A stretch of 64,000 bases of DNA from NCBI RefSeq assembly GCF_012027495.1, contig NZ_SNUK01000001.1, positions 1 to 64,000 of the forward strand. Direction: 5' to 3'. Positions 3,647-12,905 of this stretch are shown here, piece by piece (within the stretch, counting starts at the first letter, position 1; each line of letters starts with the position of its first letter). The position numbers were made by a program, and so were the translations under genes. A model generated the notes under the pieces. It searched no databases and was not told where the DNA came from. It was given only the letters and a program-made list of their open reading frames with translations. This DNA comes from Thermococcus sp. JdF3. GTDB taxonomy: Archaea > Methanobacteriota_B > Thermococci > Thermococcales > Thermococcaceae.

Positions 3647-5512
3647 ATGAGCAACATCGAATGGGATGAGAAGACCTTTTCTAGGTTTGCGTACCTGGGT
3701 GACCCGAGGGTGCGGGGGAGCTCCGTCGCCTACGTTCTCACCAAGGCCAACCTGCAGGAGGACAAATACGAGAGCACGGTGGTCGTTGAGGATCTTGAGA
3801 CGGGGGCGAGGCGCTTCATCGAGAACGCCTCCATGCCGAGGATCTCGCCGGATGGAAAGAAACTCGCTTTCACGCGTCCCAACGGGGAGAAGAAGGCAAC
3901 GGAGATATGGGTGGCAGACGTTCAGACTCTGAGCGCCAAGAGGGTTTTAACCATCAAGAACGTCCGCTCTGTGGAGTGGAACGACGACTCCAGGAGACTT
4001 TTAGTTGTGGGCTTCAAGAGGAGGGACGATGAGGATTTCGTCTTCGACGACGATGTTCCGGTCTGGTTCGACAGCATGGGGTTCTTCGACGGTGAGAAGA
4101 CGACCTTCTGGGTCCTCGACACGGAGAGCGAGGAGATACTCGAGCAGTTCGAGAAGCCGCGGTTTTCGAGCGGAATCTGGCACGGCGATTCCATAGTCGT
4201 CAACGTCCCGCACAGGGAAGGTTCCAAGCCGGCACTCTTCAAGTTCTGGGACATCTACCTCTGGAAGGACGGAAGCGAGGAGAAGCTCTTCGAGCGCGTT
4301 TCTTTTGAGGCCATCGACTCCGACGGGGAAAGGATACTCCTGAGGGGCAAGGGGGAGAAGAGGTTCATCAGCGAGCACGGGTGGCTCTACATCTACGACG
4401 GCGAGCTCAGGCCCGTTTATGAGGGTCCGCTGGACGTCTACGACGCCAAGCTGGACGGGGGGAAGGTCTACTTCCTGACCCCCGATGCCGGCAGGGTGAA
4501 CCTCTGGCTCTGGGACGGGAAGGCCGAGAGAATCGTTGCCGGCGACCACTGGGTCTACGGCTTCGACGTCCACGATGGCAGGGCAGTTCTGCTGATAGCG
4601 ACCGCGACAAGGGTCGCCGAGCTCTACCTCTACGACGGCGAGCTGAAGCAGCTCACCGACTACAACGGGCCGATATTCGCCAGACTCAGGACCTTTGAGC
4701 CGAGGCACTTCCGCTTTAAGAGCAAGGACCTTGAGATAGACGGCTGGTATATTAAGCCGGAACTCAAGGATGACGAGAAGGCCCCGGTGATAGTCTTCGT
4801 CCACGGCGGGCCCAAGGGCATGTACGGGCACCGCTTCGTCTACGAGATGCAGCTGATGGCGAGCAGGGGGTATTACATAGTCTTCGTGAACCCGCGCGGC
4901 AGCGACGGCTACGACGAGGACTTCGCGCTCCGCGTTCTGGAGAGAACCGGTCTGGAGGATTTCGAGGACATAATGGCCGGAATAGAGGAGTTCTTCAGGC
5001 TCGAACCCCAGGCGGACAGGGAGAGGGTTGGCATAACGGGCATAAGCTACGGCGGCTACATGACCAACTGGGCGCTGACTCAGTCGGACCTCTTCAAGGC
5101 AGGGATAAGCGAGAACGGCATAAGCTACTGGCTTACCAGCTACGCCTTCTCGGACATCGGCCTCTGGTACGACCTTGAGGTTATAGGCCCGAACCCGCTC
5201 GAAAACGAGAACTACCGCAAGCTGAGTCCACTCTTCCACGCGGAGAACGTCAAGGCGCCGATACTCCTCATCCACTCGCTGGAGGACTACCGCTGCCCCC
5301 TCGACCAGAGCCTGATGTTCTACAACGTGCTCAAGGACATGGGCAAGGAGGCCTACATAGCCGTCTTCAGGCGTGGGCCGCACGGTCACAGCGTCCGCGG
5401 AAGTCCAAGGCACAGGGCCAAGCGCTACAGGCTCTTCATCGAGTTCTTTGAGAGGAAGCTGAGGAAGTACGAGGAAGGGTTTGATGTTGAGAAGATACTC
5501 AAGGAGGGCTAA
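3647..5512 (+). CDS. S9 family peptidase, acylaminoacyl-peptidase-like
   Basis: A 621-residue serine peptidase of the prolyl oligopeptidase family: an N-terminal beta-propeller (residues ~1-350) and a C-terminal alpha/beta-hydrolase domain. The nucleophile is Ser467 in GISYGGY, the acid is probably Asp547 in HSLEDYRCP, and the base lies in GPHGHS (His579 or His581). VFVHGGPKG supplies the oxyanion-region HGGP motif. Length and motif set match archaeal acylaminoacyl peptidases, which cleave N-acylated or short peptides in the cytosol; no signal peptide is present. GGTGAT precedes ATG 3647. The 3' end overlaps the convergent gene by 14 bases. Confidence 0.9.
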   Translation: MSNIEWDEKTFSRFAYLGDPRVRGSSVAYVLTKANLQEDKYESTVVVEDLETGARRFIENASMPRISPDGKKLAFTRPNGEKKATEIWVADVQTLSAKRVLTIKNVRSVEWNDDSRRLLVVGFKRRDDEDFVFDDDVPVWFDSMGFFDGEKTTFWVLDTESEEILEQFEKPRFSSGIWHGDSIVVNVPHREGSKPALFKFWDIYLWKDGSEEKLFERVSFEAIDSDGERILLRGKGEKRFISEHGWLYIYDGELRPVYEGPLDVYDAKLDGGKVYFLTPDAGRVNLWLWDGKAERIVAGDHWVYGFDVHDGRAVLLIATATRVAELYLYDGELKQLTDYNGPIFARLRTFEPRHFRFKSKDLEIDGWYIKPELKDDEKAPVIVFVHGGPKGMYGHRFVYEMQLMASRGYYIVFVNPRGSDGYDEDFALRVLERTGLEDFEDIMAGIEEFFRLEPQADRERVGITGISYGGYMTNWALTQSDLFKAGISENGISYWLTSYAFSDIGLWYDLEVIGPNPLENENYRKLSPLFHAENVKAPILLIHSLEDYRCPLDQSLMFYNVLKDMGKEAYIAVFRRGPHGHSVRGSPRHRAKRYRLFIEFFERKLRKYEEGFDVEKILKEG

Positions 5513-6197
5513 GGCCTCTTTCTTTGAGCTTTTCTTTCAGCCTCTTTTCGCTTCCCCGGAAGTAGAAGAGGCACCACCCGTCTCTGCAGGCGATTTTGAA
5601 CTCTCCATCAACGTCGTCGATGTCTCCTTTTAGTTGGGCTACCCCGACGAAGCAGCTCTTATCCCGCCAGATTTCGGGTTTCTCCGGCTTTAGAAGCCCC
5701 ATGTAAAGGGCCTCTCTCATCGTCCAGAACTCGAAGGCGCAGCTGACGGTTCCGGAGCGGTGGTTGTGCTCTATGAGCTTCACCAGGAACCTGAGGTAGT
5801 CCCCGTCCCCGGGCAGGTGGTCCGGGTCGGGGAGGCTCCGGAGGATCTCTGGCGGCACGGGCTTTCCGTCCGCGTAGAGCCTCGCGGCGGTGTGGAACGG
5901 AACCCACCCGTCCACCGTCTCGATCAGCCTCACCCCCTCCCCCTCCGCCTCGGGCAGGAGTTCATCGAGGCGGCTGAACCCGGCATGAACGCCGAGCAGA
6001 ATGCTCTCTCCGAGGTACTTTCCGAAGCAGTCCATGGGCATTCTCACTACCCTTTCGAAGAAGTAGTTCCTCTCGAAGGCCTCCGCAACGGCTTCAAAGG
6101 CCCGGAGGTTGCCCCGGTGAAGCACCCTGCTGGCCGAGACGACGAGCAGGGGGTGGAGCAGGTGCCTCCTCCTGTCCGTGACTATTACCGTCTTCAC
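5499..6197 (-). CDS. Conserved hypothetical protein, 232 aa
   Basis: A soluble protein with no recognised domain. It opens MKTVIVTDRRRHLLHP, contains the short conserved-looking stretches HNHRSGTVSCAFEFW and MREALYMGLLKPEKP, three to four cysteines (CAF, SCFVG, IACRDGWC) and a basic amphipathic C-terminus (GSEKRLKEKLKERGL). The Cys/His content could reflect metal binding, but no standard motif is present. It converges with the S9 peptidase gene and is divergent from the OB-repeat gene cluster at 6353, so it probably has its own promoter in the 155-base gap. Confidence 0.6.
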   Translation of the reverse strand: MKTVIVTDRRRHLLHPLLVVSASRVLHRGNLRAFEAVAEAFERNYFFERVVRMPMDCFGKYLGESILLGVHAGFSRLDELLPEAEGEGVRLIETVDGWVPFHTAARLYADGKPVPPEILRSLPDPDHLPGDGDYLRFLVKLIEHNHRSGTVSCAFEFWTMREALYMGLLKPEKPEIWRDKSCFVGVAQLKGDIDDVDGEFKIACRDGWCLFYFRGSEKRLKEKLKERGLSPP

Positions 6198-6294
6198 GGC
6201 CCGTCTTTTGAGTGAGGCCTTAAATTATTTTCCCCGGTCGTAACGTTCCACCTTATTCAAACCTGGTTACTCCTGTCCCGTTTTGACACGAAAG

Positions 6295-6304
6295 CGTTAA
6301 AAAG
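6295..6304 (+). promoter_or_regulatory. TATA-like element for the OB-repeat cluster
   Basis: CGTTAAAAAG at 6295-6304 is a reasonable archaeal TATA element about 50 bases ahead of ATG 6353; the leader then carries GGAGGT at 6341-6346. The three following genes overlap or nearly abut, so one transcript is likely. Confidence 0.45.
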
Positions 6305-6352
6305 AGCATCCATCAACTGGGTTGCTACGTCAAATAATCCGGAGGTCTGCTC

Positions 6353-9319
6353 ATGTCGGGAAAGAAGGGTGAGAAAAAGCTCTACTACCACGGCTTGAAG
6401 GAGCAGAAGAAGCTCGACGTTTCGAGGCTCAAATACCTCTCGATTCTAATCTCCGTCATCGGCGTTGCCGTTCTGCTCGTTGCCGCCCAGAGCGCCCAGG
6501 CACCGCTCGTCAGGGTGAGCGACGTCTACGGCAACTACCTGATGAACTACGCCGTCGTCAGGATAAACGGAACGGTCGTTACGGTTCCCTACGTCTCCCA
6601 GACCGGCGGAAAGCTTGGCCTCACCTTCACGGTGGACGACGGAACGGGGCAGATCGACGTCCGCGTTTACTCCCCGCTCGCCGACGAGATGATACGGAAG
6701 GGTCTCGTTCCCTTCCCCGGCGACGAGGTGACGGCCGAGGTTCAGCTCCGCGTGAGGGAAACCTACACCTACTCGATGCTTCAGTACCTCGACGGCCTGA
6801 ATTTCCGCTCGAAACTCTACTCCGATAATCCGCCCATCGTCAAGTCCCTCAACGCCAACATGAGCGGCTCCTACGTGGCCGTCGAGGGCATCGTCACCGG
6901 GTTCTCCAACGTCAGTTCCGGGTACCTGATGACCGTCGATACCGGGGATTCCCTCGTTTCGGTGCTCGTTCCGAGGGTTCTGCTCGTCTTCAACAACCTC
7001 TCCGTCAAGGTCGGTGATACTCTCTACGCCCCGGGAATAGTCTACCTCTACAAGGGCACCTCACCGGAGATAGTCGTCAGGAACATCACCCGGCTGTCGA
7101 TTACTCCCATCGAGGAGGCGCCGCTGGTGCCCATAGGCGAGGCACCCAACTATCAGGGAATGGTCATGGCCGTTGAGGGGACGCCCGCCGGAATAACCTA
7201 TGAGAACGGCCGCTACGTGCTGACCATCACCGACGGCCGGGACTACCTCGACGCCCTCGTGCCGCGTGAAGTCCTCGCGAACCTCAACCCCTTCAACGCC
7301 TCCAGCGAGAGCACGGTCAAGGTTGCGGGAAGAATGGGGGACGACGGCAGGCTCGTCGCGGCTTACCTTGAAGTCGTCAGGCCGGTGAAGCCCGAGTTCA
7401 GGCCGATGGGGACGCTGACCACCGACATGCGCGGCTCGTTGGTGGCGGTGAAGGGCAACATCGAGGAGGTCGATAGAATAGGCTCGAACCTCAAGCTCGT
7501 CATCGACGACGGAACCGGAAGGCTGGACGTCTTCATACCCTCGGCCACCCTCGCCGAGCTGTCGAACGAGACGATGGCTCAGCTTAAGGTCGGCCTTGGG
7601 GTCGAGGTCGCCGGCTACCTCGAGGAGTACCGCGGAAAGCTCGAGGTGGTCGTTTACACCGGAGGTGGAATAAAGGCCCTCGGAGAGCCGCTCCCACCGG
7701 AGGAGATAGAGCTCCCGAAGGTCACCGCGGCTCAGCTCGCTGACTATGAGGGCCAGCTCGTGGACTTCGTCGGCTCCCTTGAGGGGGTGACCTACGCAAA
7801 CGGCGCCTACTACCTCACCGTGGACGGCGTTAAGGCTTCGCTCCCGAGGGAGGCCCTGCTGAACATCAACCCGCTCGAGGCCGGAACCGGGAGTCAGGTC
7901 ACGGTCAGGGGCCTGGTCGAGAGCTCAAGCCTCGTGAAGGGCGAGAACCTCACCGTTGAGGTGCCGATAGCCCCGATTCCTCTCAAGCCCGACGAGGTTA
8001 CCCCCGAGATGGAGGGCCAGCTCGTCGCGGTCGTTGGTAAAGTAACCGACATGGCCAACCTCAGCGGCAACCTCAAGATAGTCGTCGGCAACCTTCCGGT
8101 CTTCGTGCCGAGGACGACCGCCAACGAGCTAACCTACGTCCCGGCCAAGGGCGACCTGGTGCAGATTGGAGGATACGTTGAAATCTACCGCGACGAGCCG
8201 GAGGTGGTGCTCTTCAACCCGGCCTCAATCGAGAAGATTGAGCAGGCTGGGCCCGTTGAGGGTACCGTCTCCGACCTGAAGACCGCAATGGAACCCCTCC
8301 TCCTGACGGTTACGTGGGACTCAATTGCCTACCAGAAACCCGACTACGCCTTGACTTTCCACGACTCCACCGGAAGCGCAACCCTGCTTGCCGAGCGCTC
8401 CCTCCTGCCCAACCCGCTGAGCGCGGGAACCGGGAGCGAGCTGAGAATCGTAGCGGATCCGCTCTCCGGCAGGATAACCGCGCTGAACGTCACGAGGGCC
8501 AAGCCGTCACCGCTGGTCAGGACCGGCTCGGTGGACCTCTCGATGAAGGGCAAAACCATAACCGTGAACGGAACGGTTTCGAGCCTCTTCACCCTCGGAA
8601 GCAACCTTAAGCTTACCGTAGATGACGGAAGCGGCGGAATAGCGGTCTTCATACCCGGCGGCGCCAACCTGAGCCTCGAGAAGGGTCAGAGCGTCACCAT
8701 AGCCGGCTACGTGGACGAGTACGACGGCGAGGCTGAGGTTATAGTCTACGACCTCGATGCCGTGGTTATCGGGGAGGAACCCGTGGAGGGGATAGAGGAG
8801 ATAACCGTCTCGGAGCTTTCCGGCGCCACCGGAAGGGGGAACCTCACCGTCACCTGGGACGGGCTGAGCTACGACAATGGCTACGTCATGAAGGTCCACG
8901 ACGACACCGGAAGCGCTGAGCTCTCGGTTTCGAGGGAGCTCCTTCCGGACCCGAGGGAAGCGGGAACTGGAAGCACGCTGAGGATAACCTACGACGCCGA
9001 CGCCGGTGAGGTGGTCTCGATAACCGTCGTTGGAGCGGTTCCGGCGGAGGAATTAAGGACGGGCGACGTCACCCTCGACCTCCTCGGGAAGACCGTGGTC
9101 GTTGAGGGAACCATCACGGACGTCTACACCGGCAGCACCTTCGTCAAGCTGACCATCGACGACGGAAGCGGGGAGCTGGTGGTCTTCATACCGAAGAGCG
9201 TGGTAGGGGACTTAACCTTCAGCGAGGGCCAGACGGTCAGGGTTGCCGGCTACGTCGCCGAGTACAAGGGGGTCGTCGAGGTGATCCCCTACAGGGCCGA
9301 CTGCATCGAGGTGAGGTGA
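6353..9319 (+). CDS. Membrane-anchored protein with ~10 tandem OB-fold-like repeats
   Basis: A 988-residue protein. After a basic cytoplasmic start comes one membrane helix (residues ~28-47, YLSILISVIGVAVLLVAA), with the rest predicted outside the cell. The remainder is a string of ~90-residue OB-fold-like units; hallmark strands read DDGTGQIDVRVY, DDGTGRLDVFIP, DDGSGGIAVFIP and DDGSGELVVFIP, each followed by a closing strand of the form VAGYLEEYRGKLEVVVY. From about residue 260 the units alternate: an A type ending LP.P..AGTGS..R and a B type with the DDG.G..VFIP signature, giving about four A-B pairs. OB folds usually bind nucleic acid or oligosaccharide; the ligand here is unknown. The stop overlaps the start of the TctA-type permease gene (TGATG), indicating translational coupling. 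Confidence 0.85.
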   Translation: MSGKKGEKKLYYHGLKEQKKLDVSRLKYLSILISVIGVAVLLVAAQSAQAPLVRVSDVYGNYLMNYAVVRINGTVVTVPYVSQTGGKLGLTFTVDDGTGQIDVRVYSPLADEMIRKGLVPFPGDEVTAEVQLRVRETYTYSMLQYLDGLNFRSKLYSDNPPIVKSLNANMSGSYVAVEGIVTGFSNVSSGYLMTVDTGDSLVSVLVPRVLLVFNNLSVKVGDTLYAPGIVYLYKGTSPEIVVRNITRLSITPIEEAPLVPIGEAPNYQGMVMAVEGTPAGITYENGRYVLTITDGRDYLDALVPREVLANLNPFNASSESTVKVAGRMGDDGRLVAAYLEVVRPVKPEFRPMGTLTTDMRGSLVAVKGNIEEVDRIGSNLKLVIDDGTGRLDVFIPSATLAELSNETMAQLKVGLGVEVAGYLEEYRGKLEVVVYTGGGIKALGEPLPPEEIELPKVTAAQLADYEGQLVDFVGSLEGVTYANGAYYLTVDGVKASLPREALLNINPLEAGTGSQVTVRGLVESSSLVKGENLTVEVPIAPIPLKPDEVTPEMEGQLVAVVGKVTDMANLSGNLKIVVGNLPVFVPRTTANELTYVPAKGDLVQIGGYVEIYRDEPEVVLFNPASIEKIEQAGPVEGTVSDLKTAMEPLLLTVTWDSIAYQKPDYALTFHDSTGSATLLAERSLLPNPLSAGTGSELRIVADPLSGRITALNVTRAKPSPLVRTGSVDLSMKGKTITVNGTVSSLFTLGSNLKLTVDDGSGGIAVFIPGGANLSLEKGQSVTIAGYVDEYDGEAEVIVYDLDAVVIGEEPVEGIEEITVSELSGATGRGNLTVTWDGLSYDNGYVMKVHDDTGSAELSVSRELLPDPREAGTGSTLRITYDADAGEVVSITVVGAVPAEELRTGDVTLDLLGKTVVVEGTITDVYTGSTFVKLTIDDGSGELVVFIPKSVVGDLTFSEGQTVRVAGYVAEYKGVVEVIPYRADCIEVR

Positions 9320-10647
9320 TGGCCATGGTTCCCCTTTCAGACCTTTTAATCTGGTCCCTCGCGGGGGTGCTCTTCGGCGCCCTCATCTCCTGGATTCCGG
9401 GCTTCCACATATTCAACATAATGGCCCTGCTCGTTGCCGTCTTCGGCGTTGGCGAGCTGATGCCCGTCCAGGCCTTCCCCTTCTTCGCCATCGGCGCCAT
9501 AGTCGCCTACGCCTACGTGAGCGCGATATCGAGCGTCTACTTCAGCGTCGCCGACGAGAGCGCCGTCTTCCTCCTCTTCCCGACTCAGCGCTACCTCCTC
9601 CTCGGCAGGGGCCACGAGGCGGTCCTGCTCTACCTCATCGGAGCGGTGGCGGGAACCCTCTTCCTCGTCCTTGGGGCCCTCTTCCTCTTCCCCAGGGTTC
9701 TCCCGCCCATCTACCAGGCCACGAGTCCGTACATCACTTACTTCCTCGTCGCCATAGTGGTCTTCATGTTCATGAGCGAGTGGCCCAAGGAGGGCGACCG
9801 CGGAAGAACACCCGCTGAGAGGCTCTGGCTGGCCTGGAGACAGATACTCGGCGGAATCCTGGTGTTCTTCCTCTCCGGCCTCCTGGGCTTCATAGTGATG
9901 AACACCAACCTCCTGCCGACGACGAGCGCCTACACCCGCCTTACCCCGATGTTCATAGGCTTCTTCGGAATGTCCTGGGTGATACTCAACATACTCTCCA
10001 ACCCGCCGATGCTCGAGCAGGTTCCCGACGACAGGGTCGAGAGCAGCCTCTACAACACCCTCAAGGCCAGCTTCGGCGGCGCCCTCGGAGGAACAATAGC
10101 GGCCGTTTACCCGATAATCACCGGTGGAATGGGAGCTTTGATAGCGGGCCACATGACGAGCCAGCGCGGAGACGACGCCTTCATCATAAGCCAGGGCGTG
10201 AACAGGGTCATCTACTACGTCGGAGCCTTCACGCTCCTCTTCCTGCCCCAGCTGAGGCTCACGAGGGGAGCAGCGGCGTGGCTCGTCAGCTCCATCTACA
10301 CCCCCAAGAGCTACGCGGAGTACCTGGCCGCGATAGGTGCCATACTGCTCAGCGCGGGCATAAGCTTCCTCTTCACCTATTACCTCTCCAGGTTCATGGC
10401 GAGGAGCTTCAACGTCGTCCACATCAAGAAGCTCTCCTACGTGGTTGCAGTGACGCTCGTCGTGATAAGCTACCTCCTCACCGGCCCGATGGGACTGGCG
10501 GTGCTCTTCGTATCGACGGCGATAGGCCTGATGGCGGCTGCCTTCAACACCAGGAGGAGCTACTGCCTCGGCGGACTCATCCTGCCCGTGCTCATCAGCA
10601 TGACGGGCCACACCGGCTACTTCATGCACCTGCTCGGACTGGGGTGA
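9319..10647 (+). CDS. TctA-family (tripartite tricarboxylate transporter) permease-like protein
   Basis: A 442-residue integral membrane protein with about ten to eleven helices and Gly/Pro-rich breaks (GVLFGALISWIPGFHIFN near the start, ITGGMGALIAGHMTSQRGDD in the middle), the pattern of archaeal members of the TctA/DUF112 family. Bacterial TctA works with TctB and a binding protein TctC; neither is found here, so the substrate and energy coupling are open. ATG 9319 overlaps the stop of the OB-repeat gene and follows GAGGTGAGGTG; GTG 9316 is an alternative. The next gene starts six bases after the stop, so the three genes form one unit and probably one membrane assembly. Confidence 0.75.
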   Translation: MAMVPLSDLLIWSLAGVLFGALISWIPGFHIFNIMALLVAVFGVGELMPVQAFPFFAIGAIVAYAYVSAISSVYFSVADESAVFLLFPTQRYLLLGRGHEAVLLYLIGAVAGTLFLVLGALFLFPRVLPPIYQATSPYITYFLVAIVVFMFMSEWPKEGDRGRTPAERLWLAWRQILGGILVFFLSGLLGFIVMNTNLLPTTSAYTRLTPMFIGFFGMSWVILNILSNPPMLEQVPDDRVESSLYNTLKASFGGALGGTIAAVYPIITGGMGALIAGHMTSQRGDDAFIISQGVNRVIYYVGAFTLLFLPQLRLTRGAAAWLVSSIYTPKSYAEYLAAIGAILLSAGISFLFTYYLSRFMARSFNVVHIKKLSYVVAVTLVVISYLLTGPMGLAVLFVSTAIGLMAAAFNTRRSYCLGGLILPVLISMTGHTGYFMHLLGLG

Positions 10648-10653
10648 TGGAAG

Positions 10654-12051
10654 ATGAGGGGATTCACCCACTACATCTCGGGCCTCGCGGCGGCGACCTT
10701 CTTCGCCGCCCTCGTCGGTGACCTTAGGCTGGGCATACTCATTCCGGTCATCGCGGCTGCTGCCGCTTACTTCCCCGACTTCGTGGACTTTAAGTTCGGA
10801 AAGTTCCTGGCCAGGAGGGACTACGAGATAGACCCCGCCCCCTGGGACGAGAAGAAGCACTACGCGCCGAAGCTCGTCAAGGTAAGCGAGCTGAGCGAGG
10901 AAAACCGCTACCAGTTCTTTGCCATCGAGGGAACGGTGAAGGATATACTCGCCAGGGGCTCCGGGAAGGTCTCCTACAAGGTCCTCCGCGAGGACGGAAG
11001 CGAGGAGACCGTCACGGAGGAGTACAACAGCATAGTCTTCACCCTCAACGACGGAACGGGGAAGATAACCGTCGAGGCCTTCGGCGACGACTACGAGTTC
11101 TTCGAGGAGGAGTTCGGAAAGATTGAGGAGGGCAAGAAGCTGCTTGTCTTCGGCTACGTCGATGTCGGAGAGGAGGGCCTCAAGCTCGTCGTCAGCGATG
11201 CCCCCCACCCGCAGGGCATAGCGGACACCATAGCGAGGGCCATCGAGGAGGCCTATCGCGAGGGCGAGAGGATAGTCAAGATACACAACATTCGCCTGCC
11301 CGGCGACGTTTACAGGCGCTTCCTGGTCCACCTCGATCCGCCCAAGAGGGAAGTCCGCGTCGAGATGGGGCCGATAGTAACCCCGGGCGGTGTCGCGATA
11401 GGCGGTGACGTTCCTGAGTACAGGAAGTACGGCGTGGCCAAGGTGAGCGTGCCCTTCATCAAGACCTACCCCAAGCCCACGAGGATAGACTCCTTTTCGG
11501 GCCCGGAGATAGCCTTCAGGAGGGCCCAGTTCAGGGGCAAGACGGTCGTCAAGGACAGGTTCCTGCCCTGGCACCACGGCTTCAGTCACTCCCTCACGAT
11601 GGGCATGATAATAGGCCTCGTCGTCTTCGCTTTCTTCAAGCTGATCGGCTACGAGCACGCCACCGAGCTCGCACTCGCTTCGATGATAGGTCAGTGGCTC
11701 CACGTCTTCGAGGACCAGCTCGGCTTCATGGGGAGCAACCTGCTCCCGCCGATAACCAAGGACGTCGTTCCGGGCTTCAAGCTCGGCGAGAGCGGTAGTG
11801 GGCTTACCAACTTCTCAACGGCCTGGCTGATGATAGCCTTTATGATATGGAACTTCAACCGCTTCACCGACCCGAGGCCGATACCGATGAGCGACGCCAA
11901 GCTGCTGCTCCTCCTGGCCTGGCCGTCGATAATAGGCTTTGGAATAGCGATAGTCAAGAGCTTCAGGCTTAGAAGGGAGATCTCCGAGCTCATGGACTAC
12001 TACACGAACCTCGAAGCCTTTGAGGAGATGGAGGAGGTCGGAGGGATTTAA
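10654..12051 (+). CDS. Membrane-bound metal-dependent hydrolase (DUF457/YdjM-like) with inserted OB-fold domain
   Basis: A 465-residue protein. The N-terminal part (MRGFTHYISGL then YFPDFVDF) and C-terminal part (WHHGFSHSL, HVFEDQLG) carry the His/Asp ligands and membrane helices of the YdjM/LrgA-neighbour metal-dependent hydrolase family. Between them, residues ~75-190 form an OB-fold-like domain (VFTLNDGTGKITVEAFGDD, then FGYVDVGEEGLKLVV), the same signature as in the OB-repeat protein two genes upstream. A basic linker and a second soluble segment follow. Substrates of this hydrolase family are not established. The shared OB element in two genes of one operon suggests that both recognise the same ligand. 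Confidence 0.75.
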   Translation: MRGFTHYISGLAAATFFAALVGDLRLGILIPVIAAAAAYFPDFVDFKFGKFLARRDYEIDPAPWDEKKHYAPKLVKVSELSEENRYQFFAIEGTVKDILARGSGKVSYKVLREDGSEETVTEEYNSIVFTLNDGTGKITVEAFGDDYEFFEEEFGKIEEGKKLLVFGYVDVGEEGLKLVVSDAPHPQGIADTIARAIEEAYREGERIVKIHNIRLPGDVYRRFLVHLDPPKREVRVEMGPIVTPGGVAIGGDVPEYRKYGVAKVSVPFIKTYPKPTRIDSFSGPEIAFRRAQFRGKTVVKDRFLPWHHGFSHSLTMGMIIGLVVFAFFKLIGYEHATELALASMIGQWLHVFEDQLGFMGSNLLPPITKDVVPGFKLGESGSGLTNFSTAWLMIAFMIWNFNRFTDPRPIPMSDAKLLLLLAWPSIIGFGIAIVKSFRLRREISELMDYYTNLEAFEEMEEVGGI

Positions 12052-12905
12052 TTCTTCCCTCTTTTGTTTTCCGGTTTTCTCGCCACAACTCCAAGCGCTT
12101 CCTCCACCCTTCTAACCCCGACGAAGCCCGCTCTCCTCAGCCTCTCCATGACGCCCCTCTGCAGGTCCTTCCTCCGGTACTTCTTCCCGGGGTTGCCGAC
12201 GTAGTGGAACAGCCTTCCGCCGGGTTTGAGAACCCTGAACAGCTCGCCGTAGAACTCCTCCGAGTAGAGCTGGCCCGCTAAAGAAAAGCGCGGCGGGTCG
12301 TGGATAACCACATCGAAGCTCTCGTCCTTGAACTTCTTCACGACCTCGAAAGCGTCGCCCTGAATCACCTGCACCTTCCCGCCGGTGAAGAGCTCCCTGC
12401 TCCAGGGGTTTATCCTCGCGAGCTCGAGCACGTTCGGGTCCTTCTCGATTGTTATGACGTATGCCCCTCTCTTTGAGGCTTCTATGGCCGTGTAGCCGAG
12501 TCCCATGCAGGTGTCGAGAACCGTTTCGCCCTCTTTCGGCTTTACCGCGTTCACCTTGTTCCTCGTGTCCTGGAGGGGGTTCACTTCCTTTGTCCTGTGC
12601 ATTCTGATGCCGTTTATCTCAATCGTGGGCGGAATCGTCGGGACGAGCTTGTAGTAGTGCTCACCAGCTATGGCGGCTTTGTAAACGCCGTCCCTCACGA
12701 AGTAAACGCTCCCCTCGTCCCTCGCGATTTTCTCTGTGGTCTCCTTCGAGACTCGCGTTCCGTCGGGAAAGATGAACTCGTCGCCCTCCCCTTTTATCTC
12801 CCACGTCCTGTTGGTTTTTCTAAGGTCGAGGTTGAGCCTCGCTCCGCCCTCCGCGAAGAGCAGTCTTCTCGCGTCTCTCGCGGTCAGAAAGTAGAGTTCG
12901 TCCAT
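12048..12905 (-). CDS. Archaeal SAM-dependent methyltransferase (COG2521-like)
   Basis: A 285-residue protein with a ~115-residue N-terminal domain and a class I Rossmann methyltransferase domain. Motif I is ETVLDTCMGLGYTA (residues ~127-140), the acidic ribose-binding loop is ITIEKDPN, and motif IV is IHDPPRF (203-207), a DPPF/Y-type motif usual for enzymes that methylate an exocyclic or ring nitrogen. Family membership points to an RNA or base substrate, but this is inference. ATG 12905 is chosen because GGTGGGAG lies directly upstream; a longer frame reaches into the dipeptidase gene. The C-terminus overlaps the end of the convergent hydrolase gene by four bases. Confidence 0.8.
   Translation of the reverse strand: MDELYFLTARDARRLLFAEGGARLNLDLRKTNRTWEIKGEGDEFIFPDGTRVSKETTEKIARDEGSVYFVRDGVYKAAIAGEHYYKLVPTIPPTIEINGIRMHRTKEVNPLQDTRNKVNAVKPKEGETVLDTCMGLGYTAIEASKRGAYVITIEKDPNVLELARINPWSRELFTGGKVQVIQGDAFEVVKKFKDESFDVVIHDPPRFSLAGQLYSEEFYGELFRVLKPGGRLFHYVGNPGKKYRRKDLQRGVMERLRRAGFVGVRRVEEALGVVARKPENKRGKN

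What the first reader, a model, noticed from the sequence alone, without database searches (positions are those of the whole stretch)
6353..12051. Three-gene OB-repeat / TctA-permease / DUF457-hydrolase cluster
Seen: three genes overlap or abut; gene 1 has one membrane helix and about ten external OB-fold-like repeats, gene 2 is a TctA-family permease without TctB or TctC, gene 3 is a membrane metal-dependent hydrolase with an inserted OB fold of the same signature (NDGTGKI here, DDGTGRL/DDGSGEL there). Inference: the external repeats capture an extracellular polymer (nucleic acid or glycan), which the hydrolase cuts and the permease moves. No such system is known to me.
Basis: partly seen in the sequence, partly recalled or inferred. 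Interest (0 to 1): 0.75.

Follow-up and report, generated by a model that had tools for sequence, protein, structure and literature searches.

The report
Archaeal OB-array, TctA and membrane-hydrolase operon
Many Thermococcus species and two unrelated groups of archaea share a three-part cell-surface machine (an external chain of OB domains, a membrane channel and a membrane hydrolase) whose simpler two-part cousin is needed for taking up DNA in another archaeon, so it is a testable candidate for an archaeal DNA-uptake or DNA-scavenging device.

Summary
Gene 1 (6353-9319) has one N-terminal membrane helix and ten OB repeats. Gene 2 (9316-10647) is a TctA-family permease without TctB or TctC. 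Gene 3 (10654-12051) is a YdjM/DUF457 membrane protein with an inserted RPA-like OB fold. The link is real and old: all 30 Thermococcus genomes with this permease have gene 3 beside it, and the same gene order occurs in Aciduliprofundum and in four genomes of another archaeal phylum, where gene 3 lacks the OB insert.

Most archaea, including this genome, carry another TctA, often directly behind a membrane-anchored OB gene; in Methanococcus maripaludis that pair (MMJJ_13020/13030) is essential for natural transformation (PMC10133366). The window permease is a separate clade (100/100), so a paralogue, not the orthologue.

Best reading: a nucleic-acid uptake or processing machine with the logic of ComEC (OB domains, channel, metal-dependent phosphodiesterase) built from other parts. 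Main evidence against: the external OB array is strongly acidic (pI 4.45). The cluster is accessory: half of the genus lacks it and five genomes keep deletion scars. No published description of the three-gene set was found. Substrate, transport direction and nuclease activity are untested.

The parts
6353..9319 (+). Gene 1: membrane-anchored array of ten OB domains, 988 aa
6353..6433 (+). Gene 1 basic cytoplasmic tail, residues 1-27 (net charge +6)
6428..6487 (+). Gene 1 single transmembrane helix, about residues 26-45
   Evidence: hydropathy peak at residue 35
6506..9316 (+). Ten OB repeats starting at 6506, 6827, 7112, 7385, 7700, 7976, 8255, 8510, 8783 and 9044, alternating between two subtypes
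   Evidence: leave-one-out profiles against shuffles
9316..10647 (+). Gene 2: TctA-family permease of a separate clade (called TctA2 here)
10654..12051 (+). Gene 3: YdjM/DUF457-family membrane protein
10849..11205 (+). RPA-like OB domain inserted in gene 3, about residues 66-184; absent from the Aciduliprofundum and G132-phylum homologues
10669..11715 (+). Stretch holding the conserved gene 3 residues H6, D42, D45, H307, H312, H350, D354, invariant in 15 sequences; putative metal site
6290..6346 (+). Probable archaeal promoter (GAAAGCGTTAAAAAG) and ribosome-binding site GGAGGT before gene 1, by eye
   Evidence: sequence; not tested statistically
12040..12058 (+). Terminator-like hairpin with T-rich tail at the end of the operon
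   Evidence: no clear excess of such sites over shuffles, so weak

Best explanation
The three genes form one operon for a cell-envelope machine that captures, imports and processes nucleic acid, most likely DNA. SHOWN HERE OR IN PRINT: the OB array follows one membrane helix with a basic tail; the permease is an archaeal TctA-like protein without TctB or TctC; gene 3 keeps seven invariant His/Asp residues; the three genes stay together across three archaeal lineages; a related OB+TctA pair is essential for natural transformation in M. maripaludis. INFERRED: the ten extracellular OB domains hold the strand at the surface, TctA2 is the membrane path, and the YdjM hydrolase (reported relative of the phospholipase C/P1-nuclease group) with its basic domain and RPA-like OB fold receives and trims the strand on the cytoplasmic side. 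This is the division of labour of bacterial ComEC, built from unrelated channel and nuclease parts. It is accessory: it probably scavenges DNA or adds to uptake beside the universal OB+TctA pair that Thermococcus keeps.
For: (1) Linkage: 30 of 30 Thermococcus genomes with TctA2 have gene 3 beside it; the same order and strand occurs in two Aciduliprofundum genomes and four of 28 genomes of a third phylum, with extra anchored OB genes upstream. (2) MMJJ_13020 (anchored OB) and MMJJ_13030 (TctA) deletions abolish transformation and are complemented; the M. thermophilus TctA deletion abolishes it too. (3) TctA2 aligns to MMJJ_13030 at profile probability 98.8, E 9.5e-17, and gene 1 to the universal OB-partner family at 94.9, E 4.4e-8. 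(4) Best PDB fold matches of gene 3 are P. abyssi RPA and other ssDNA-binding OB folds; the universal OB partners match RPA32, Teb1, Stn1 and RPA2 chains as well as aminoacyl-tRNA synthetases. (5) 7 of 32 OB partners match DUF4131, the ComEC OB domain, best E 1.7e-6, and there is no ComEC channel in this genome. (6) Gene 1 weakly matches ExeM/NucH extracellular endonucleases in one stretch (4.9e-5, far below the curated cut-off). (7) Published profile comparison puts YdjM with alpha-toxin phospholipase C, HET-C and S1-P1 nuclease.
Against: The external array is acidic (net -52, pI 4.45) and so is the gene 3 OB insert (net -11), unusual for binding a polyanion, although MMJJ_13020 is acidic too. 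TctA2 is a paralogous clade, not the orthologue of MMJJ_13030, so function may have shifted. Thermococcales that can be transformed but lack the cluster exist. The DUF4131 matches are weak (the two seen individually lie below Pfam's cut-off), and a direct profile comparison with E. coli YcaI failed. My models of gene 3 found no P1-nuclease or phospholipase fold. YdjM could act on lipids.
Confidence: 0.48

Rival explanations
1. The cluster moves or remodels something other than nucleic acid: the acidic OB array binds an extracellular glycan, peptide or cation, TctA2 is a symporter for a small organic anion released from it, and the YdjM protein is a membrane-facing phosphodiesterase or lipase.
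For: OB folds bind oligosaccharides, peptides and metals as well as nucleic acid (established knowledge). The array is acidic, pI 4.45. TctA is by family an organic-anion permease (PMC5898192). YdjM has been proposed to be a phospholipase.
Against: No TctC-type binding protein is present. A true TctCBA set exists in T. litoralis and its TctA lies far away in the tree. The related OB+TctA pair has a DNA-uptake phenotype, and the inserted OB of gene 3 is RPA-like.
Confidence: 0.32
2. The machine works outward: it exports or secretes DNA or another polymer (for example DNA released into vesicles or biofilm), with the cytoplasmic YdjM and its OB fold loading or cutting the strand and the external OB array holding it.
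For: The hydrolase and its OB fold probably face the cytoplasm (hydropathy and charge reading), which suits substrate entry from inside as well as arrival from outside.
Against: The only phenotype of a related pair is loss of uptake. No ATPase is encoded in the operon.
Confidence: 0.1
3. The gene order is an inherited accident of Thermococcus and the three proteins do not work together.
For: The Thermococcus loci read in full share one chromosomal site between an S9 peptidase and a methyltransferase, so within the genus the linkage is one event.
Against: The same order recurs at 33-37% protein identity in Aciduliprofundum and a third phylum in different surroundings. Losses in Thermococcus remove the three genes together.
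Confidence: 0.05

Closest known systems
Archaeal OB+TctA natural-transformation pair (M. maripaludis MMJJ_13020/MMJJ_13030; arCOG04469-type TctA)
   Same: Single-helix anchored OB protein encoded directly before a TctA-like permease; no TctB or TctC; detectable homology of both proteins
   Different: The window permease is a separate, paralogous clade; ten OB repeats instead of one; a third gene, YdjM, is added; no phenotype known
ComEC/Rec2 bacterial DNA channel
   Same: Same three kinds of part: OB domain, polytopic channel, metal-dependent phosphodiesterase; weak DUF4131 similarity of some OB partners
   Different: No Competence domain and no metallo-beta-lactamase domain; three polypeptides; hydrolase of another superfamily and probably on the other face of the membrane (ComEC description: PMC12455585)
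TctABC tripartite tricarboxylate transporter
   Same: PF01970 permease fold
   Different: No TctB, no TctC; true TctA of T. litoralis is a distant outlier in the tree
YdjM/DUF457 membrane proteins (reported relatives of phospholipase C and S1-P1 nuclease)
   Same: PF04307 above cut-off and conserved His/Asp set
   Different: A long soluble domain between the first two helices and the rest, and in Thermococcus an inserted OB fold; two ordinary YdjM proteins lie elsewhere in the genome

Membership tests
OB-fold proteins (genes 1 and 3) | Match to OB-fold profiles above curated cut-off | tested here: met
   PF01336 91.1 bits (gene 1) and 31.1 bits (gene 3), cut-off 27; repeats validated; fold match to RPA for gene 3
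TctABC tricarboxylate transporter | TctA permease fold | tested here: met
   PF01970 149 bits, full length
TctABC tricarboxylate transporter | Accompanying TctB and TctC | tested here: not met
   None beside gene 2 or beside any TctA2 examined; present in the T. litoralis control
Archaeal OB+TctA transformation pair | Anchored OB gene directly upstream of a TctA-like gene | tested here: met
   profile matches
Archaeal OB+TctA transformation pair | Permease orthologous to MMJJ_13030 | tested here: not met
   TctA2 forms its own clade, 100/100; the genome has a separate universal TctA
Archaeal OB+TctA transformation pair | Required for DNA uptake | not testable with these tools
   needs a knockout
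YdjM/DUF457 | PF04307 match and conserved His/Asp residues | tested here: met
   46.1 bits, cut-off 29; H6, D42, D45, H307, H312, H350, D354 invariant in 15 sequences
Phospholipase C/S1-P1 nuclease superfamily | Shared fold or profile similarity | tested here: inconclusive
   No such hit with moderate-confidence models or profile; relation reported in PMC8557891
ComEC | Competence domain PF03772 in the genome | tested here: not met
   absent; the same search finds it in 10 of 14 control genomes
ComEC | DUF4131 OB domain | tested here: inconclusive
   7 of 32 OB partners match, best E 1.7e-6; the window gene 1 itself does not; YcaI comparison negative

The most novel reading that the evidence does not exclude
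The cluster is a split archaeal counterpart of ComEC: an OB array, a TctA-type DNA channel and a cytoplasmic-side metal-dependent nuclease, evolved from unrelated channel and nuclease families, that imports DNA in hydrothermal-vent archaea for food or genetic exchange.
Probability: 0.3. Interest if true: 0.88.

Novelty: new variant of a known kind. Interest (0 to 1): 0.64.

Why it matters
How archaea bring DNA across the membrane is an open question: the Methanococcus screen paper notes that archaea lack identifiable ComEC, and its only candidate channel is the TctA-like protein (PMC10133366). This cluster joins that candidate to a larger apparatus that looks built for handling nucleic acid, including a possible nuclease. 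Thermococcus kodakarensis (identified here by its genome length; known to be naturally transformable) carries both the universal pair and this three-gene cluster. Single and double deletions there would directly test whether archaeal TctA proteins are DNA channels.

Tried and rejected
TctABC transporter: rejected for lack of TctB and TctC and by the tree. Anti-phage defence system: no PADLOC match to any of the three proteins. Chance repeats in gene 1: rejected by shuffles. P1-nuclease or phospholipase fold of gene 3: two AlphaFold models, with and without the OB insert (pLDDT 74.6 and 71.7), gave no such hit in the PDB, and a profile search of PDB sequences gave none; left open rather than rejected, as the alignments were shallow. 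ComEC OB homology by direct profile comparison with E. coli YcaI: nothing. Sequence search of the PDB with gene 1 or gene 2: no hit. Plasmid collection: only two bacterial TctA relatives. Literature: no paper held DUF457 with OB-fold and archaea; a combined search led to the Methanococcus screen.

Full report
WHAT IS THERE. The window is Thermococcus DNA (genome G000; nearest named records are Thermococcus MAGs). Three genes on the + strand overlap or abut: 6353-9319, 9316-10647 and 10654-12051. Gene 1 matches OB-fold profile PF01336 at 4.2e-26, gene 2 matches TctA PF01970 at 1.5e-43 over its whole length, and gene 3 matches YdjM PF04307 at 5.1e-12 plus PF01336 at 2.3e-7. Gene 1 has a basic tail (+6 in 27 residues), one strong hydrophobic helix and then ten OB repeats. 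A profile of the other nine finds each left-out repeat better than any of 500 shuffles of it; repeats 1 and 9 are the weakest. The repeats alternate between two kinds, as if a two-OB unit had been multiplied (read from the alignment).

TOPOLOGY (inference from hydropathy and charge; no dedicated predictor was available). Gene 1 is N-in with the OB array outside. In the distant relatives the tail before the helix is a zinc ribbon, which also fits a cytoplasmic position. In gene 3 the conserved residues H6, D42, D45, H307, H312, H350, D354 all fall on one side of the predicted helices, together with the soluble domain and the inserted OB fold. The arginine-containing C-terminal tail favours the cytoplasm for that side, but the margin is small. 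So the order is probably: OB array outside, channel, hydrolase with OB inside.

THE LINK IS REAL. In the Thermococcaceae, 30 genomes carry the window-type permease and all 30 carry gene 3 beside it; they are about half of the members of the genus searched. No other genus of the family has the window-type permease or gene 3. The Thermococcus loci read in full share one site between an S9 peptidase and a methyltransferase. Five further Thermococcus genomes keep only the last 40-90 or so codons of gene 3 at that site, so the cluster has been lost in place several times and is dispensable. A profile of gene 3 finds close relatives elsewhere only in Aciduliprofundum (two genomes) and in four of 28 genomes of another phylum. 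In all six, an anchored OB gene, the permease and the YdjM gene stand in the same order, with one or two further anchored OB genes in front. Their YdjM lacks the OB insert, so the insert looks like a Thermococcus addition.

THE MISSING CONTEXT. Every genome of the family at least 90% complete has a TctA; all of them have one 24-32% identical to this one or are covered by the family tally, and the window's genome has both kinds. In the window's genome the second TctA overlaps the end of an upstream signal-anchored 388-aa gene; Pfam gives no OB match for that protein, so its OB nature rests on its resemblance in layout and on the wider family. Across archaea, TctA-like genes occur in 208 of 297 genomes. 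Of 36 loci outside the family where the upstream side could be read, 16 have a membrane-anchored OB gene directly in front (counted by hand from its list). One of those genomes is M. maripaludis: the permease lies at 1193577-1194716, and the paper's transposon site in MMJJ_13030 is 1,194,079, with MMJJ_13020 hit at 1,193,041-1,193,089. In that paper both deletions abolish natural transformation and are complemented, and deletion of the TctA homologue of M. thermophilus abolishes transformation too (PMC10133366). The window proteins are related to this pair: permease profile probability 98.8, E 9.5e-17; gene 1 to the OB-partner family 94.9, E 4.4e-8. But the tree of 58 permeases puts the window type in its own clade (100/100), apart from MMJJ_13030 and from the universal Thermococcaceae type; a true TctA from a TctCBA set in T. 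litoralis is far from both. It is therefore a paralogue.

WHY NUCLEIC ACID. Besides the phenotype of the related pair, the gene 3 OB insert is closest in fold to P. abyssi RPA and other ssDNA-binding OB folds. The universal OB partners match RPA32, Teb1, Stn1 and RPA2 chains, and also aminoacyl-tRNA synthetases. Seven of 32 OB partners match DUF4131, the OB domain of ComEC, with best E 1.7e-6; that domain is described as a DNA-binding OB fold (PMC5031224) and ComEC joins OB fold, channel and nuclease (PMC12455585). This genome has no ComEC channel domain. YdjM has been linked by others to phospholipase C, HET-C and S1-P1 nuclease (PMC8557891).

WHY NOT SURE. The external array is acidic, pI 4.45, net -52, as is the inserted OB. 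The three Thermococcaceae universal partners tested are basic, so the universal pair looks the more DNA-like of the two; yet MMJJ_13020, which is needed for DNA uptake, is acidic too. My models of gene 3 did not show a nuclease fold. YdjM might be a lipase. Naming genomes by length rests on my own memory of published lengths, except M. maripaludis, which is supported by coordinates.

VERDICT. A real, conserved three-gene system, not described in the papers I could search, that extends the archaeal OB+TctA DNA-uptake pair by an OB array and a membrane hydrolase. Works like: probably a DNA capture, channel and processing machine. Member of: the wider archaeal OB+TctA kind, as a new paralogous variant; not TctABC and not ComEC.

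Noticed in passing
L081:2812-3558, L106:7227-7985, L050:1737-3244: A KaiC/RecA-like ATPase gene stands just before the universal OB+TctA pair in the window's genome and in T. kodakarensis, and two such genes lie near the universal TctA of Aciduliprofundum; a possible energy partner.
   Followed up: no
L108:3955-7209: The A. boonei operon starts with a 1084-aa anchored protein with a PKD domain and OB folds, in front of two zinc-ribbon/OB proteins.
   Followed up: partly
L110:13509-14915 and L114:12320-13732: In some Thermococcus an extra lipoprotein of about 470 aa with OB folds stands before a shorter gene 1.
   Followed up: partly
L091-L095: Five Thermococcus genomes keep only the 3' end of gene 3 (about 40-90 codons) between the same flanking genes, with different break points: scars of repeated loss.
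   Followed up: yes
L041:4954-5565: MMJJ_13020 ends in a Cys/His motif (HTFEDCPYG...CSYCEE) that looks like a small metal-binding domain after its OB fold.
   Followed up: no
L042:5312-6505: M. jannaschii TctA has no OB gene next to it, although it is the closest relative of the M. maripaludis one in the tree.
   Followed up: no
L061:3590-6658: T. litoralis carries a genuine TctC-TctB-TctA set next to a sugar-kinase-like gene.
   Followed up: no
window 5499-6197 (-): A 232-aa gene between the S9 peptidase and gene 1 has no Pfam or NCBIfam match and is present in only some relatives.
   Followed up: no
G000:C7:25133-25675 and G000:C5:38855-39352: Two ordinary short YdjM proteins exist elsewhere in the genome.
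   Followed up: no
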